Assembly (NCBI RefSeq): GCF_017979475.1
Contig: NZ_JAERIT010000003.1
Coordinates: 1 to 64,000, forward strand
Direction of reading: 5' to 3'
DNA: 64,000 nucleotides
DNA from: Helicobacter pullorum NCTC 12824
Lineage (GTDB): Bacteria; Campylobacterota; Campylobacteria; Campylobacterales; Helicobacteraceae
Made by a program: the position numbers and the translations under genes. The notes below the pieces were generated by a model, which did no database searches, had not been told where the DNA came from, and was given only the letters and a program-made list of their open reading frames with translations. Positions within the stretch are counted from its first letter, which is position 1; each line of letters begins with the position of its first letter. Shown here one piece after another: positions 39,242-60,057 of the stretch.

Positions 39242-39898
39242 ATGCTAGAATGGAGCAATGAATTTAGCGTAAAGAACGCATATTTGGACAATCAGCACAA
39301 ACAGCTTTTTCAATATGTTGCTGATGCTTATAACCTCACTAAAAATGGTGTAAAAAATAAAGAATCTCTATTACTTCTAATTAACAAAATTTTAGAGTAT
39401 TCTAAAGAGCATTTTAGAGATGAAGAAAGTTATATGCAACGCATTAATTATCCTTTGTTGAAAAAACACAAAGAATCTCATCAAAAAATGATTGCCACTA
39501 TCCACAAGATTAGGGCTAATTTGGGGGATAGTCAAAAAGATAGCATAGAAGTTTATAGTTTTTTGAAAAATTGGCTTTTGAAGCATATTTTGCAAGAAGA
39601 TAAGAAAATCGAAGCATATCGCAGTCGTTTGATTGATATTAATGAAATACCTTATACTCTTGAGCAACAAACGCAGATTCTTGCGCAAACTTATAATGTT
39701 CAGCAAGAGCAGCAACATATTTATATTTGTCTTTGTCCTTTAAAGGAATTTGAAGTCTGTGATACTCTTCATAAAAGTATGCAAATTAATCAAACTCTTT
39801 TGCGATGCAAAACATGCAAACAACCTTTGGTGTTTAAAGATATAAAACTTGATGATGAAAAACATTTTGATGCCTTAGCGAAAAAATATTTTCATTAA
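39242..39898 (+). CDS. Bacteriohemerythrin with C-terminal Cys-pair domain
   Basis: The 218-aa product has a four-helix hemerythrin domain with the full di-iron set at His19, His57, Glu61, His76, His80, His115 and Asp120 (HFRDEE, HKESH, HILQED). It would bind oxygen reversibly. A C-terminal extension (about 155-218) carries CLC...C and CKTC, like a small zinc ribbon, also seen in the paralogue at 59482. The next gene starts 12 nt downstream, so hemerythrin and a FapA-like protein form an operon. Confidence 0.9.
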   Translation: MLEWSNEFSVKNAYLDNQHKQLFQYVADAYNLTKNGVKNKESLLLLINKILEYSKEHFRDEESYMQRINYPLLKKHKESHQKMIATIHKIRANLGDSQKDSIEVYSFLKNWLLKHILQEDKKIEAYRSRLIDINEIPYTLEQQTQILAQTYNVQQEQQHIYICLCPLKEFEVCDTLHKSMQINQTLLRCKTCKQPLVFKDIKLDDEKHFDALAKKYFH

Positions 39899-53021: not shown

Positions 53022-53723
53022 TTGAATTACGCTAATAGCCTTTTTGGGACGATTAAAGAGGATTTTGGCGTTATTTTGCAAAAAGATCCAGCCATTAATT
53101 CTAAAATTGAATTATTCTTTAATTATCCGGGCTTGATTGCTTTGGTGCATTATCGAATAGCACATAAGTTGCACTTAAAAGGCTTTAGGGTTTTAGCAAG
53201 AATCTTAATGGGATTCACGCAATGGATTACAAATATCGATATTCACCCAGCTTGTAAAATTGGGCATAGAGTTTTTATTGACCATGGGATTGGAGTTGTG
53301 ATTGGGGAGACTGCAGAAGTTGGTAATGAAGTAACAATTTATCAAGGTGTGAGTTTGGGCGGAGTGAGCTTGGAGAAAACCAAACGCCATCCAACCATAG
53401 AAGATAATGTCATCATCGGAGCAGGAGCAAAAATTTTGGGCAATATCACTATTGGAGTAAATTCTAAAATCGGAGCAAATTCTGTTGTAATTGCTTCTGT
53501 TCCGCCAAATTCTACTGCCGTTGGTATCCCAGCAAGGACAATCATCAAGGGTAAAAGTAATGATTTAAACAAGATTCCAGATATTCAATTGCAGCTTTTT
53601 ACATATTTGCAAAAACGTTTAGAATTATTAGAATCGCAAATTCCTCATTCTGAAGAATTGCAAGCAAGTATAGAAAAACTCAATCTTATATATTATGAAT
53701 TTCTAAAGTCAAGAAGAGAATAA
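53022..53723 (+). CDS. cysE: Serine O-acetyltransferase CysE
   Basis: The 233-aa product has an N-terminal helical part (FFNYPGLIALVHYRIAHKLHLKG) and a left-handed beta-helix of hexapeptide repeats with catalytic HPACKIG and [15 protein letters not shown]. It makes O-acetylserine for cysteine. The start is uncertain: TTG 53022 is chosen because GGGGAAG lies before it and it avoids the 50-nt overlap with speA. The central 230 bp (53286-53518) recurs exactly at 56116-56348. Confidence 0.9.
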   Translation: MNYANSLFGTIKEDFGVILQKDPAINSKIELFFNYPGLIALVHYRIAHKLHLKGFRVLARILMGFTQWITNIDIHPACKIGHRVFIDHGIGVVIGETAEVGNEVTIYQGVSLGGVSLEKTKRHPTIEDNVIIGAGAKILGNITIGVNSKIGANSVVIASVPPNSTAVGIPARTIIKGKSNDLNKIPDIQLQLFTYLQKRLELLESQIPHSEELQASIEKLNLIYYEFLKSRRE

Positions 53724-54167
53724 AATGATTATTTTTTTAAAGAGGCTTTGCTTGGAGTGTATCATAAGGTATCTTGCGACATCTTTACGCCCAAACATAA
53801 TAGCAAAAGAAAAAGGAGTCATTCCTAAGCCATTATTTTCATCAATATTTGCACCATTGCTTACTAATAATTTTGCCATATCCAGATATCCTTTAAAGCA
53901 AACTCCAGCTAATGGGGTTTGTCCTCTATCATTTTTTTCATCCACTTTAGCGCCTTTTTCAAGCAACATTTTAGCAGTTTCTAAAGAATTATTATAAGCT
54001 GCTAACATAAGTAGAGTATCACCTCTATGTGTTTTTAGATTAACATTTAATCCAGCTTCTATCATAATCCTTAGATTTTCAAATTCATTATTTCTAGCAA
54101 AATTAAAAGCCATATTGCAAAGCTCTCCAAATCGTTTTTCTTCTTCTAAAGAAATTTCATTCATCAT
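53709..54167 (-). CDS. Ankyrin-repeat protein partner of catalase
   Basis: The 152-aa protein has three or four ankyrin repeats (GDTLLMLAAYNNSLETAKMLL, GQTPLAGVCFKGYLDMAKLL, GMTPFSFAIMFGRKDVARYL) and no signal peptide. Downstream of katA it matches the Cj1386 arrangement of C. jejuni, where the ankyrin protein supports heme loading of catalase. Its 3' end overlaps the converging cysE by 15 nt. Confidence 0.9.
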   Translation of the reverse strand: MMNEISLEEEKRFGELCNMAFNFARNNEFENLRIMIEAGLNVNLKTHRGDTLLMLAAYNNSLETAKMLLEKGAKVDEKNDRGQTPLAGVCFKGYLDMAKLLVSNGANIDENNGLGMTPFSFAIMFGRKDVARYLMIHSKQSLFKKIIILFSS

Positions 54168-54221
54168 TTTATCCTTGTTTATCTATTAGTCAATCTAAAA
54201 ATTGATTTTTAATAGCTATGA

Positions 54222-54249
54222 TTTTAGAGTGAGAATTCTCACTCTAAAA
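54222..54249. terminator. 28-nt perfect palindrome after katA
   Basis: TTTTAGAGTGAGAA and its exact complement TTCTCACTCTAAAA form a 14-bp inverted repeat just past the katA stop. On the minus strand the stem is followed by TCATAGC, so the U-tract is formed only by the stem's own U-run. It sits between katA and the ankyrin gene and may partly terminate or stabilise the katA message. Confidence 0.7.
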
Positions 54250-54250
54250 G

Positions 54251-55675
54251 TTATTTACTCAACGCTTTTTTAACACCCTCTGCATATTCTTTGCTAATTT
54301 TTTCAAAATGCATTAGAGCTTTGTCTATGATTTTTTGTTCAACACCTTCCATTGATGAGGCAATATTATTAAAGAGTTGTTCTTTTTGAGAATCATTCAT
54401 TATGTCAAATAGGGCTTTTGGTTGGGTGTAAAAATCATTATCCAATGGCGCATATCGTTGTGCTGCAGCTTCTAAATTCAAATCTGGTTCCAAATAATTT
54501 TTATCTTCTTTTGGGCTATCATCATAGCTATTTGGTTCATAGTAAGCTGATTTGTTTTTATACTCATCAAAATTCATAGCTCCAGCAACATTATAGGTAT
54601 TAACCTCACTTCTTGCTCTATTAATAGGCAAGAGATGATAGTTAGTTCCTACTCTATATCGGTGCGCATCAGGATAGCTAAAGATTCTGCCTTGGAGCAT
54701 TTTATCAGGACTAAAGCCAATTCCAGGCACGATATTGCTTGGGCTAAAGGCGGCTTGTTCTACTTCGTTAAAGTAATTTTGTGGATTTTTATTAAGAATC
54801 ATTTCTCCAATATCCATCAAAGGCACGATGCTATGGGGCCATACTTTTGTCAAATCAAAGGGATTGAATCCTAATTTATCCACTTCATTTTCAGGCAAAA
54901 TCTGCACTTGGAATGTCCATTTAGGGAAATCCCCTTTTTCGATACTATTATATAAATCTCTTTGGTGAGATTCTCTATCTTTGGCAATAATTTCTTCAGC
55001 TTCTTTGTTGGTTAAATTTTTAATGCCTTGTTGAGTTTTAAAATGGAATTTTACCCAAAACCTTTCTCCTTTATCGTTGATGAGACTATAAGTATGGCTT
55101 CCAAAGCCGTGCATATGTCGATAACTTGCTGGAATTCCCCTATCACTCATTAAAATTGTAATTTGGTGTAAGGCTTCAGGGCATAATGTCCAAAAATCCC
55201 AGGCTGCATTTGCGTTTCTTAAATTTGTTCTTGGATCTCTTTTTTGGGTGTGGATAAAATCAGGAAATTTGTAAGGATCTCTTATAAAGAAAGTTGGCGT
55301 GTTGTTTCCAACTAAATCCCAATTGCCTTCTTTGGTGTAAAACTTAATTGCAAAACCTCTTACATCTCTTTCTGCATCAGCTGCACCGGATTCTCCAGCT
55401 ACAGTTGAAAATCTCAAGAAAAGTGGAGTAACTTCTCCTTTTTGCAAAACTTTAGCCTTAGTAAATTGTGAAATATCAGCTGTGATTTTTAATTCTCCAT
55501 AAGCACCGCTTCCTTTGGCATGCACTACTCTTTCAGGTATCCTTTCTCTATTTTGATGAGCAAGTTTTTCAAGTAGGATATAGTCTTGTAATAGTAAAGG
55601 TCCTTTTGGTCCAGCAGAAAGTGAATTTTGATTGTCTGCTACTATATTTCCAAAGTCATTTGTAAGTTTTTTCAT
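54251..55675 (-). CDS. katA: Catalase KatA
   Basis: This 474-aa small-subunit heme catalase breaks down hydrogen peroxide. The distal His52 lies in [12 protein letters not shown], Asn in [13 protein letters not shown] (about 122-133), and the heme-ligating Tyr in [15 protein letters not shown] (about 335). No signal peptide, so it is cytoplasmic. A palindromic operator lies 68 nt upstream, suggesting peroxide- or iron-responsive control. Followed by its ankyrin helper. Confidence 0.97.
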
Positions 55676-55742
55676 AAAGATTACCTATCCTTTAAATAAA
55701 ATTTATTAACAAGGAAATAATATCTTATATAAAATAAAAATA

Positions 55743-55773
55743 ATATTAAATAATAAAATTTATTATTTAATAT
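55743..55773. promoter_or_regulatory. 31-nt perfect palindrome, probable PerR/Fur operator of katA
   Basis: ATATTAAATAATAAA, one central A, then the exact reverse complement of the first arm. It lies 68-98 nt before the katA ATG. It contains the TTATTATT / AATAATAA half-sites expected of PerR and Fur boxes in Campylobacterota. The symmetry over 15 + 15 positions exceeds what AT-richness alone would readily give. Confidence 0.7.
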
Positions 55774-55880
55774 AAAGTATCAAAAATATTTTTTTAAGCA
55801 GTTTTTAGTTTCCTTTTTGTTTTTAAAGTATATAATATTTAATGTTTTCAGGGTTTTTAGTGAGGTAGTCAAAATAAATA

Positions 55881-56553
55881 AGTTAGGAAAGAGGAGGACT
55901 AATACTACCATCTTGGAGCAAAGAGTTGAGCGTCCATAATGAAGCAATTGATGAGCAACATAAAAAATTATTTGAAATTGCTGGAAGAGCTTACGCACTA
56001 ACTAACAAAAAAGCCACAAAAGAAGAAATTATCACTATTCTTAGGGAATTATTAAACTATACGCAAGAGCATTTTAAAGATGAAGAAGCCTATATGGAAT
56101 CTATCTATTATCCGCGGGATTGGAGTTGTGATTGGGGAGACTGCAGAAGTTGGTAATGAAGTAACAATTTATCAAGGTGTGAGTTTGGGCGGAGTGAGCT
56201 TGGAGAAAACCAAACGCCATCCAACCATAGAAGATAATGTCATCATCGGAGCAGGAGCAAAAATTTTGGGCAATATCACTATTGGAGTAAATTCTAAAAT
56301 CGGAGCAAATTCTGTTGTAATTGCTTCTGTTCCGCCAAATTCTACTGCTGTTGGTATTCCAGCAAGGACAATCATCAAGGGCAAAAGTAATGATTTAAAC
56401 AAGATTCCAGATATTCAATCACAGCTTTTTACATATTTGCAAAAACGCTTAGAATTATTAGAAAGTGAAGTGGTTTATTCTGAAAATTCACTCAAAAACC
56501 TTGAAAAACTCAACCAAATGTATCAAGAGTTTCTTACAAATAAATATTAATTA
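55881..56553 (+). pseudogene. Hemerythrin-5' / cysE-3' chimera
   Basis: 55908-56116 matches 59488-59696 (first part of the intact hemerythrin gene) base for base by eye. From 56116 the sequence switches to 53286 onward (middle of cysE) and is identical to about 56348, then diverges through the cysE 3' end. The hemerythrin start codon is ATA (55902-55904), and the two halves are in different frames, so no fused protein is possible. The hemerythrin part stops after Arg72, before three iron ligands. The cysE part (open 56080-56550) lacks the N-terminal domain. Confidence 0.92.
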
Positions 56554-56649: not shown

Positions 56650-57576
56650 ATGAGAATCATTTTGATGCTTTTGTGTCTATTGATAAATATGAAAGCCGCA
56701 GATTTTGTTGAAATTGGTATCGAGCCTATTCCAGATTCTTTGCCTTTTGATGAGCAAAAAGCTAGACTTGGCAAAATGTTATATATGGATACTAATCTCT
56801 CAAAAGATAAAACTATTTCTTGCAATTCCTGTCATCATCTTACAGGCTATGGTGTGGATAATGAACGCTTTTCATTTGGCGTTGGAGGCGCTACAAATGG
56901 TGCGACTAATTCCCCAACTAGTTTCAATGCAGTTTTTAATTTTGTGCAATTTTGGGATGGTAGAGCCAAAGATTTGCAGGAGCAAGCAGGCGGTCCTTTG
57001 TTGAATCCAGTAGAACATGGTATGACAGAAGATGAAGTCATCGAGGCTGTGAAGGGTAATTTGGAATATGTAGAATCCTTTAAAGAAATTTATGGGGAGA
57101 TTACTTTTGAGAATATTACAGATGCGATTGCGGAGTTTGAAAAAACATTAATTACGCCAAATTCACCTTTTGATAGATGGTTAAAGGGAGATGAAAATGC
57201 TATATCTCCAGCTGCAAAGAGAGGTTTTCAAGCATTTCGTTCAAATGGTTGCATCGCATGCCATCAAGGTCAAAATATCGGCGGCAATATGTACCAAAAA
57301 ATAGGTATCTTTGAGCCTTATGCTGCAACTGGAAATCCCGGCAGATATGGAGTAACAAAAGAAGAAGAAGATAAGTTAGTCTTTAAAGTCCCATCTTTGC
57401 GAAATATTGCTAAAACTGCCCCTTATTTTCACGATGGTAGCGTAGAGACTTTAGAAGTTGCAGTTCAATTAATGGCATTTTATCAATTAGGAAAATTCCT
57501 CAATAATGATACAGTGCAAGATATTACAGCATTTTTAGAGAGTCTTACAGGAGAATACAATGACAAGCTCCAATAA
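56650..57576 (+). CDS. Di-heme cytochrome c peroxidase
   Basis: The 308-aa periplasmic enzyme (signal peptide [16 protein letters not shown]) has two heme c sites, CNSCH (Cys58-His62) and CIACH (Cys201-His205). MauG/CCP-family blocks include [15 protein letters not shown]-like text and [19 protein letters not shown]. It reduces peroxide with cytochrome c electrons. Its end overlaps the chemoreceptor start by 17 nt, so the two are translationally linked. Confidence 0.96.
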
Positions 57577-59350
57577 AAAAACTTTTTCATTCCTTTATCA
57601 ATTTATTAGCTTATCGGCTTTTGTCCTTATTTTTATGTTGCTTTTGCTTTTTATTATTTTTAATACTCATGCTAATGTTGAGAAAAACACGCAAATTTCC
57701 GATGCTTTAAAGAGATTAGAATATTTGGATTTAAGAATTGACAATGTATTTAAGAATTATTTTGATTTTATGAATTATGATGAAAGCGTGAGAGATTCTA
57801 GGGAGTTTGCACAAGAATTGCAATTTCTAACAAATCAAGGTTTGGACACATCAAAAATTGCAGAAATTTTTAAAGCAAAGCAAAATCAATTAGATAAATT
57901 CAAGCGTGCTAATTCTATTGCTTTTAATTCCAAAACTTTTCTTTATGCACTCCATCAAGAAATCGCACAACTTGCAGAGAATAATTCAAGTTATGCCTCT
58001 ATTGTTAAGCTTACTAATTCTATATTAGCCAAATTAGCCACAGATAATATCCTTGAGAGTGAGAATCTTAAGGAGCTTAATGCCGCTATTGCAAAGTTAG
58101 AAACCTTTTCATCTTTGAATGATCAAAATGTTACGCTTTTTATTAAGCATTATAAAATGATGTTGGCTCAAGCTGCTTTGATGCAAAAGAATTCTGAAAT
58201 ATACAAAGATCAAACACTTCAAAAAGAATTGATTTTGGCTAATAAAGTAGTTCAAGCCCAAATTGCAAAAGAAAGTCAAGATAGACTTTATATTGCTTAT
58301 GGTGTGTTTGGTGCTACATTGCTTGTGCTTTTATTCTTCATTTTCTTGACACTCAAAAAAGTGATTATCCCTATTTCGCTTTTAGAGAAATTAACTAAAA
58401 ATTTAGCTTCTAAAGAGGCAAATTTGAAATCGCGTCTAGTGATTGATGCAAAGAGTGAATTATCTAAAAGTGCAAATTATATTAATTCCTTCATTGCAGT
58501 GGTTGAAAATTCTATTTTAGAGGCAACTGAAAATGCAAAAGCAAGTCTAAATAACTCACAGCAATTAAAAGAAAATGCAACGATTCTACAAAAAAATTCC
58601 GATATACAAGATGAGCAAATTTCTACTTTGAGAAAAATTGGTTTAGCATTAGATGAGCATATTTCAGCTAATGGGGTTTTAGCGCAAAATACCATTGAAG
58701 ATATGAATAAAATGCAAAAGGTTATGCTAAAAGCAGAAGAAACACTTAAGGAATTAGCAAAACTTATTGAACAAGGGAATGAACAAGAAAACATTATTAT
58801 GGATAATATGGGCAATCTCTCTAGCAGCGCAGATAGTATTACTAGCATTACAGAGAGTATCAAAGACATTGCTGATCAAACTAATCTTCTTTCACTTAAT
58901 GCGGCTATTGAAGCAGCAAGAGCAGGGGAGCATGGTAGAGGATTTGCTGTGGTTGCAGATGAGGTAAGAAAACTTGCAGAAAAAACCACAAAATCTCTTG
59001 CTGAAATCAATGCTACTGTTTCACTCATTGCACAGCAAATTCGTGATAATATTGAAGGAATGAAAATAGTGCATGATTCAATGAGTGAAACTAATGAAGT
59101 TGCAAATGAGTTGCAAAATGAAGTGGTTGATACAATGGAGAGATTGAGAATTGGCATTAAATCTACTCAAAATATGGCAGAGAAAAATATTGAAGCAAAG
59201 GAAAAAATGGCACTTTTAGATGAAAAACTAAATGTCGTAAGTGATATTTCTAACCATATTAAAGCGCTTTCTAATGAAGTGAATGCAATTTCAGTGAGTG
59301 TCCTTGAAGGCTCTAGCAAACTCTCTGATAAGTTGAGTAGTTTTCAATAA
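57560..59350 (+). CDS. Methyl-accepting chemotaxis protein
   Basis: This 596-aa transmembrane chemoreceptor has helix 1 (about 11-36), a helical periplasmic sensor domain (about 37-243), helix 2 (about 244-268), a HAMP-like linker, and a cytoplasmic coiled coil with the conserved tip [24 protein letters not shown] (about 437-460). The ligand is unknown. Overlap with the peroxidase gene and a hemerythrin gene downstream point to oxidant or oxygen taxis (inference). Confidence 0.94.
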
Positions 59351-59481
59351 TCTTTAGGGAAGTTTTCTCCCCCATTCCATAAAATTTTTACAAACACTTT
59401 TAAAATTTTTATGGTTTAAGAAATTTTATAGTAAAATCACTCTAAAGATTAAAATGTCAAAGTTAGGGGGGAGGATAGCAG
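59351..59481 (+). promoter_or_regulatory. Promoter gap of the hemerythrin gene
   Basis: An imperfect long A/T hairpin (CCATAAAATTTTT ... AAAATTTTTATGG, about 59377-59414) could end the chemoreceptor transcript. A TATAGT -10-like box lies near 59427, and a strong GGGGGGAGG ribosome site at 59465-59473 precedes ATG 59482. The last 30 bases resemble the sequence before the chimera at 55881. Confidence 0.4.
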
Positions 59482-60057
59482 ATGCTGCCATCTTGGAGCA
59501 AAGAGTTGAGCGTCCATAATGAAGCAATTGATGAGCAACATAAAAAATTATTTGAAATTGCTGGAAGAGCTTACGCACTAACTAACAAAAAAGCCACAAA
59601 AGAAGAAATTATCACTATTCTTAGGGAATTATTAAACTATACGCAAGAGCATTTTAAAGATGAAGAAGCCTATATGGAATCTATCTATTATCCGCGTTTG
59701 ATTCAGCACAAAGAGAGGCATCGCGAGATTATTAGAGATATGACAAGTGCTGTTATGCAGATTCGCAATGTCGATGATTTGAAAGAGCAATTAGCTGTTA
59801 TTGCCAAAAAATGGCTTTTGGAGCATATTATAAGAGAGGATATGCAAATTGAGAAATTTCGCAGAAGCACTTGTCAAATTACCCCACAAGAAACCAAAGT
59901 CAAAAATATTGTAGAAGAATCCAAAGTTCAATATACTTGTAATTGTCAAGGTAAGGTGCATTTGGTGCCTTTGGAATTGCACAATAAAATACAAAAAGAA
60001 AATGTTATTTTTAATTGCAAAACCTGCAAAGGAAGAATCAAACTACTAGAACAATAA
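59482..60057 (+). CDS. Bacteriohemerythrin with C-terminal Cys-pair domain
   Basis: The 191-aa product has a hemerythrin domain with His20, His57, Glu61, His76, His80, His115 and Asp120, all in the same spacing as the paralogue at 39242. Its C-terminal tail (about 153-191) has CNC and CKTC, again a small Cys-pair module. It would bind oxygen at a di-iron centre. Its first 209 bp beyond the start are duplicated at 55908. tkt starts 15 nt after the stop. Confidence 0.92.
   Translation: MLPSWSKELSVHNEAIDEQHKKLFEIAGRAYALTNKKATKEEIITILRELLNYTQEHFKDEEAYMESIYYPRLIQHKERHREIIRDMTSAVMQIRNVDDLKEQLAVIAKKWLLEHIIREDMQIEKFRRSTCQITPQETKVKNIVEESKVQYTCNCQGKVHLVPLELHNKIQKENVIFNCKTCKGRIKLLEQ

What the first reader, a model, noticed from the sequence alone, without database searches (positions are those of the whole stretch)
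55881..56553. Out-of-frame hemerythrin/cysE chimera with similarity that decays away from the junction
A 5' hemerythrin piece (55908-56116, identical to 59488-59696 by eye) is joined at a single shared G to a cysE piece (56116-56348, identical to 53286-53518). Flanks on both sides are related but diverged: the hemerythrin upstream region has ATA for ATG, and the cysE C-terminal end differs at many codons. An old pseudogene should show even decay; exact identity centred on the junction points to gene conversion, transformation-mediated mosaicism or an assembly join. A tandem duplication starting in cysE and ending in hemerythrin, followed by complementary loss (katA-ankyrin kept in one copy, peroxidase-chemoreceptor in the other), would also create this exact order.
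Basis: partly seen in the sequence, partly recalled or inferred. Interest (0 to 1): 0.8.

Follow-up and report, generated by a model that had tools for sequence, protein, structure and literature searches.

The report
Catalase import kept beside resident peroxidase
A Helicobacter appears to have taken up a 2.3-kilobase catalase segment from another species while, through a tandem duplication, keeping its own peroxidase genes; the broken hemerythrin/cysE hybrid is the scar where the two versions of the locus meet.

Summary
In detail: 55908-56116 equals 59488-59696 (209/209), 56116-56348 equals 53286-53518 (233/233), joined at one shared G. The stretch 53604/53634 to 55907/55924 (cysE tail, ank, katA, katA-hem spacer) has 19 mismatches in 2274 bases to an 11-8110-like Helicobacter lineage (G004/G005), while the rest of the window averages 78% (203 of 246 windows with data). 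It is an interspecies import with edges inside cysE and at the hem start. Four relatives carry cysE-ank-katA-hem in single copy. The chimera's own cysE tail, leading into ccp-mcp, is resident-type. So two versions of one locus stand in tandem: cysE-[ank-katA]-hem5'::cysE3'-[ccp-mcp]-hem. A plain swap would have cost ccp, the only CCP/MauG-family gene found in this genome; the duplication kept it. The 'decaying similarity' mostly marks where foreign DNA begins, not pseudogene ageing. Complementary loss from one block is not supported. Transformation plus tandem duplication through a nearly homology-free joint is the best mechanism; the order of steps is open, and no reads were available to exclude an assembly error.

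The parts
53022..53723 (+). full-length cysE (serine O-acetyltransferase); resident-type to 53603, import-type from 53604/53634 to its end
   Evidence: TIGR01172 above cut-off; diagnostic sites; tail 115/117 identical to G004 against 80/117 for the chimera's tail
53634..55907 (.). imported island (minimum extent; maximum 53604-55924): cysE tail, ank, katA, katA-hem spacer
   Evidence: 19 mismatches in 2274 bases plus a gap of 33 bases to G004, the same count to G005; windows outside the island mean 77.7%, sd 5.6, max 91, 203 of 246 with data
53709..54167 (-). ank, ankyrin-repeat protein next to katA
   Evidence: Pfam Ank families; 98.7% identical to G004 over 149 aa
54251..55675 (-). katA, catalase; the only full-length catalase match found in this genome
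   Evidence: PF00199; 99.8% protein identity to G004/G005; genome search, whose one other match in this genome is partial at 27%
55902..56116 (+). chimera, 5' part: truncated hem, start codon ATA; resident sequence from 55908/55925 on
   Evidence: 209/209 identical to 59488-59696; start codon comparison
56116..56116 (.). novel joint hem5'::cysE3'; one exactly shared base, within an imperfect match TATT..CC..G (7 of 11)
56116..56550 (+). chimera, 3' part: truncated cysE with resident-type tail; open frame from ATG 56080
   Evidence: 233/233 identical to 53286-53518; tail 80/117 to G004; 127 bits against the TIGR01172 cut-off of 211
56650..57576 (+). ccp, di-haem cytochrome c peroxidase/MauG family; the only one found in this genome
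   Evidence: PF03150
57560..59350 (+). mcp, chemoreceptor with a DAHL domain, paired with ccp
   Evidence: PF00015, PF19443; at E <= 1e-60 the only other match in 19 genomes is in G003, beside its ccp at another locus
59482..60057 (+). full-length hem (bacteriohemerythrin), resident-type
   Evidence: NF033749 and TIGR02481 above cut-off; 77-79% protein identity to G003-G005
53286..53603 (+). direct-repeat arm A1 (partner 56116-56433, 5 differences in 318); recombination between the two would remove 2830 bp including ank-katA
55880..56116 (+). direct-repeat arm B1 (partner 59460-59696, 227/237 identical); recombination between the two would remove 3580 bp including ccp-mcp

Best explanation
The locus is a heteroallelic tandem duplication. 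The resident version was cysE-ccp-mcp-hem (inferred). A fragment carrying cysE-ank-katA-hem from the G004/G005 lineage recombined in by homology, with edges inside cysE and at the hem start (shown), probably by natural transformation (inferred). Just before, just after, or during the same exchange between sister chromosomes, the segment from inside cysE to inside hem was duplicated through a nearly homology-free joint (joint shown, process inferred). One copy now carries the imported ank-katA, the other the resident ccp-mcp; the hem5'::cysE3' chimera is the joint and probably a dead remnant. The effect is that an allele swap became a gene addition: catalase was gained and the peroxidase kept. 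The direct repeats predict that the state is reversible: recombination between the cysE arms would drop ank-katA, between the hem arms ccp-mcp.
For: Island 19 mismatches in 2274 bases to G004 and to G005 against a mean of 77.7% (sd 5.6, max 91) in the 203 of 246 outside windows with data. katA: window-G004 99.2%, G004-G005 99.3%, G003-G004 91.0%; tkt: 78.2, 99.4, 89.8; so the direction is from the G004/G005 lineage into the window genome. Both edges lie in genes that the two versions share. Four relatives have cysE-ank-katA-hem in single copy. The two cysE tails differ in origin (115/117 vs 80/117 to G004). The repeats are exact next to the joint. Island length, 2274-2321 bp, lies in the range of mean import lengths reported for H. 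pylori transformation, 1294-3853 bp (PMC2582958, abstract). katA and ccp are each the only full gene of their kind found in the genome. Weak support: ComEC- and DprA-family genes are present, but those families also ring in 10 and 11 of 14 control genomes, E. coli among them.
Against: No genome with the inferred resident order cysE-ccp-mcp-hem was found among the 19 searched. No reads were available, so the joint is unconfirmed, and with exact repeats of 233 and 209 bases a short-read assembly could hold the two modules in the wrong order. The 5 differences at 53519-53603, two of which match none of the compared sequences, are not explained by one direct import from a G004-like donor. One genome only; no second strain.
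Confidence: 0.84

Rival explanations
1. A variant of the best explanation, not exclusive with it: homology-facilitated illegitimate recombination with a conspecific donor that already carried the island. The left end entered by homology in cysE, the right end (resident-type hem') joined illegitimately to the recipient's cysE, so that the chimera formed in one transformation step.
For: The five recipient-type but differing sites at 53519-53603, two of them private to the window's full-length cysE, suggest a proximate donor of the same species. A similar mechanism is proposed for T6SS immunity arrays (PMC5361080, passages).
Against: The 209-base hem piece has no difference from the resident hem, which needs an identical donor allele or later gene conversion. 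No conspecific carrying the island is at hand (one genome per species held).
Confidence: 0.25
2. An addition to the best explanation, not exclusive with it: gene conversion. An older chimera was recently homogenised by the neighbouring cysE and hem copies, which also leaves identity ending at the joint.
For: 0 differences in 442 bases beside the joint (hem and cysE pieces together) but 5 in the next 85 of cysE (Fisher p = 1e-4, boundary chosen after seeing the data) looks like the end of a conversion tract.
Against: Two separate conversions, both reaching the joint, are needed; and the import itself is recent, its katA being as close to G004 as G005's is.
Confidence: 0.15
3. Tandem duplication of one ancestral block cysE-ank-katA-ccp-mcp-hem, then complementary loss.
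For: Gives the same gene order.
Against: The ank-katA copy, its cysE tail and the katA-hem spacer are foreign, the ccp-side cysE tail is not. None of the 18 other genomes shows the whole block.
Confidence: 0.04
4. Assembly or mixed-culture artefact.
For: 26-contig assembly, no reads on hand; exact repeats of 233 and 209 bases make the order of the modules uncertain for short reads.
Against: A mix of the two single-copy versions needs no hem-to-cysE joint, and the joint has one base of exact overlap, too little for an assembler to join on (general knowledge). Tabled contamination 0.03. Resident and imported sequence share only about 30 and 17 bases at the two import edges.
Confidence: 0.05

Closest known systems
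Transformation-generated merodiploids of Streptococcus pneumoniae (Johnston et al. 2013, PMC3784515; abstract and sections 9 and 19 read)
   Same: Donor and resident versions of a locus kept side by side in a tandem duplication bordered by repeats; the authors think it likely in transformable species generally
   Different: There the joint forms through pre-existing repeats and duplications of about 100 to 900 kb are documented; here the joint has one exactly shared base, the repeat unit is 3580 bp, and the two copies differ in gene content
Homology-facilitated illegitimate recombination, as in the model for Vibrio cholerae T6SS immunity arrays (PMC5361080; passages read)
   Same: A homologous edge, a nearly homology-free joint, and a resident gene displaced downstream and kept
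   Different: Here both edges of the foreign DNA are homologous, and the illegitimate joint connects two resident-type sequences
Helicobacter pylori transformation imports with mosaic ends (PMC2582958 and PMC4917963; abstracts read)
   Same: Kilobase-scale import with sharp ends and possible patchwork near one end
   Different: Here the import is between species and accompanies a duplication
cagA copy-number variation in H. pylori PMSS1 (PMC5358911; abstract read)
   Same: Direct repeats in a Helicobacter chromosome with copies gained and lost
   Different: Those copies are of one gene; here the two repeat intervals hold different genes

Membership tests
Transformation-generated merodiploid | Two versions of one locus in tandem on one chromosome, bordered by direct repeats | tested here: met
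   (in the assembly; no reads)
Transformation-generated merodiploid | One version is foreign, the other resident | tested here: met
Transformation-generated merodiploid | Novel joint lies within a pre-existing homologous repeat (as in PMC3784515) | tested here: not met
   one exactly shared base at the hem/cysE joint
Transformation-generated merodiploid | Formed during DNA uptake, RecA-dependent | not testable with these tools
   only ComEC- and DprA-family genes shown present, families also found in most control genomes
Homology-facilitated illegitimate recombination | One end of the donor DNA joined by homology | tested here: met
   left edge 53604-53634 in cysE
Homology-facilitated illegitimate recombination | Other end of the donor DNA joined illegitimately | tested here: inconclusive
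   the foreign tract ends homologously in hem (55908-55924); only a conspecific donor with resident-type hem would fit
Homologous import tract as in H. pylori transformation | Kilobase length with sharp edges in shared genes | tested here: met
   2274-2321 bp
Decaying pseudogene | Even divergence along the copy | tested here: not met
   0/442, then 5/85, then a change of origin

The most novel reading that the evidence does not exclude
The locus is a reversible two-state cassette. The cysE repeats (318 bp) and hem repeats (237 bp) let the population shed either ank-katA or ccp-mcp, so that cells segregate into catalase-only, peroxidase-only and double carriers. Transformation would then supply bet-hedging variation in peroxide defence at one slot, and heteroallelic merodiploidy would be a route by which enteric Helicobacter turn allele swaps into gene gain.
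Probability: 0.12. Interest if true: 0.6.

Novelty: new member of a known kind. Interest (0 to 1): 0.42.

Why it matters
If true, this is a natural example, caught soon after the event, of an interspecies import that added genes instead of replacing them: the relatives, both import edges and the duplication joint can all be read. The transformation merodiploids that I read about are pneumococcal laboratory transformants; a heteroallelic one in a sequenced Helicobacter, with a different gene pair in each copy, would show how a competent species can keep both versions of a locus. It makes testable whether such states are stable or collapse.

Tried and rejected
Complementary loss from one ancestral duplicated block: rejected on the mosaic of origins. 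Old decaying pseudogene: rejected. ank-katA as the resident module: rejected, since it is 99% identical to G004/G005 against a 78% background. Where ccp-mcp came from stays open: G003 has the pair beside a fabH-like gene; the window genome has nothing between the corresponding neighbours, and G004 has no intact pair there but a short stretch resembling the start of ccp.

Other imports from the same lineage within the window: none of comparable identity. In 203 of 246 windows of 250 bases outside the island that had aligned G004 sequence the maximum was 91%; 43 windows had no data. A first, narrower comparison (52 windows, max 88) and two searches at coarse resolution agree. At least one outside window (58751) rests on a match of mcp to another receptor gene.

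The species of the window genome was not identified. Among the rows listed by paper searches (4 of 4; 10 of 49; 2 of 2; 3 of 3), judged by titles and abstract beginnings apart from the papers named above, I saw no description of this case; most subscription papers are not held. Searches (canadensis, kapA, winghamensis) gave nothing used here; search 44 led to PMC2582958 and PMC4917963, search 46 to PMC5358911. Names recalled, not from a family search: speA, tkt, fabH, pseudopilin-like.

Full report
OBSERVATION. The repeats are as described. One search finds 53276-53575 / 56106-56405 (98%) and 55871-56116 / 59451-59696 (94%). Base by base, 53286-53518 equals 56116-56348 (233/233) and 55908-56116 equals 59488-59696 (209/209). 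The joint at 56116 has one exactly shared base. Just upstream hem and cysE agree in 7 of 11 bases (TATT..CC..G); 1.6% of the 389,160 hem/cysE position pairs compared do as well or better, so a role for annealing is possible but weakly supported.

RELATIVES. The window belongs to a genome of 1,708,003 bases in 26 contigs, rated 93% complete. Of 18 other genomes of the genus, G003, G004, G005 and G013 have cysE, ank, katA, hem and tkt in that order (G013's hem matches with stops and that genome is 76% complete). G011, G015, G016 and G018 have cysE directly before hem. In the other ten, cysE and hem lie apart or no close match to one of them was found. A ccp-mcp pair close to this one was found in one other genome only, G003, behind a fabH-like gene. 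The window genome has nothing between the corresponding neighbours; G004 has no intact pair there, but about 30 bases that resemble the start of ccp.

AN IMPORT. Of 246 windows of 250 bases outside the island, 203 could be compared with G004: mean identity 77.7%, sd 5.6, maximum 91. The eight windows wholly inside the island are at 99-100%, the two edge windows at 92 and 91. The island has 19 mismatches in 2274 bases, plus a gap of 33 bases, to G004; the mismatch count to G005 is the same and to G003 it is 212. For katA the window is as close to G004 (99.2%) as G005 is (99.3%), while G003 is at 91.0%, near G003's usual identity to G004 (tkt 89.8, speA 92.8, cysE 94.2). The direction is therefore from the G004/G005 lineage to the window genome. 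The left edge lies between 53603, the last resident-type site, and 53634, the first clear import-type site, inside cysE. The right edge lies between 55907 and 55925, at the start of hem.

WHY SIMILARITY SEEMS TO DECAY. Moving away from the joint one crosses from resident into foreign DNA in one partner of each comparison. The full-length cysE ends with a foreign tail (115/117 to G004); the chimera's tail is resident-type (80/117) and leads into ccp. Upstream of the chimera's hem piece lies the foreign katA-hem spacer, while the intact hem has its own. One real gradient remains: five differences at 53519-53603, where both copies are resident-type, against none in the 442 bases nearer the joint (Fisher p = 1e-4, with the boundary chosen after the fact). 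Two of the five (53528, 53591) match neither the chimera nor G003, G004 or G005. A conspecific donor already carrying the island, or the end of a conversion tract, would explain them; this is not settled.

WHAT IT IS. The order cysE-[ank-katA]-hem5'::cysE3'-[ccp-mcp]-hem is that of two versions of one locus in tandem. The resident unit from the joint to the end of the second hem arm is 3580 bp. The most economical history is a tandem duplication of the resident cysE3'-ccp-mcp-hem5' segment together with replacement of one copy's ccp-mcp by imported ank-katA, in either order or in one exchange between sister chromosomes. Shown in the assembly: the foreign island, its edges, the joint, the two cysE tails. 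Inferred: the single-copy resident version, uptake by transformation, the order of steps. The island length lies in the range of mean import lengths in H. pylori transformation (PMC2582958, abstract; PMC4917963 gives a mean of 1645 bp for the longer class, abstract). ComEC- and DprA-family genes are present, but these families also ring in 10 and 11 of 14 control genomes, so this is weak support for competence.

CONSEQUENCE. katA is the only full-length catalase match in the genome (the one other match is partial, at 27%), and ccp the only CCP/MauG-family gene found; with 93% completeness, absence elsewhere is not certain. A plain swap would have exchanged one for the other. The chimera itself is probably dead: the start codon of its hem piece is ATA, private to it, the hem frame stops soon after the joint, and the 156-aa product of the cysE frame is below the cysE family cut-off. 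From recall, not from a call, the joint removes the conserved Asp-His of CysE.

CAVEATS. No reads were available. With exact repeats of 233 and 209 bases, short reads alone would allow the opposite order of the two modules. In that order the lost start codon would fall on the only full-length hem, which makes the assembled order the likelier. A mixture of two single-copy strains would not create the joint.

KNOWN KINDS. Transformation can create tandem duplications that hold donor and resident alleles (PMC3784515, abstract and sections 9 and 19), but there the joint forms through homologous repeats; here it does not. Homology-facilitated illegitimate recombination (as discussed in PMC5361080, passages) keeps displaced resident genes, but here the foreign tract ends by homology on both sides. 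The case belongs to the broad kind and fits neither model exactly.

Noticed in passing
L114:2526-5256 (G003), L141:3020-3060 (G004), L140:2904-2911 (window genome), window 56650-59350: The ccp-mcp pair lies at different sites in two species: behind a fabH-like gene in G003, between cysE and hem here. G004 keeps about 30 bases like the start of ccp at the fabH site, which suggests a lost copy.
   Followed up: partly
L115:2782-3318 (G013): In G013 the hem gene next to katA matches with several in-frame stops, so hem at this slot may be lost in another lineage too, or the assembly (76% complete) is poor.
   Followed up: no
L039:6884-8103 and L040:8791-10012 (G002, G017): Two hem paralogues, about 44% and 72% identical to the window's, stand in tandem in front of tkt.
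   Followed up: no
window 39248-39823: A second hemerythrin-family gene, 39% identical to the one at 59482.
   Followed up: no
G000:C20:133947-134348 and G003:C1:275232-275636: A distant catalase-family match (27-28% identity, open frame about 331 aa), with similar matches in several other genomes of the genus.
   Followed up: no
window about 53750-53780: The island lacks about 33 bases that G004 and G005 have between cysE and the end of ank, and the C-terminus of ank differs there.
   Followed up: no
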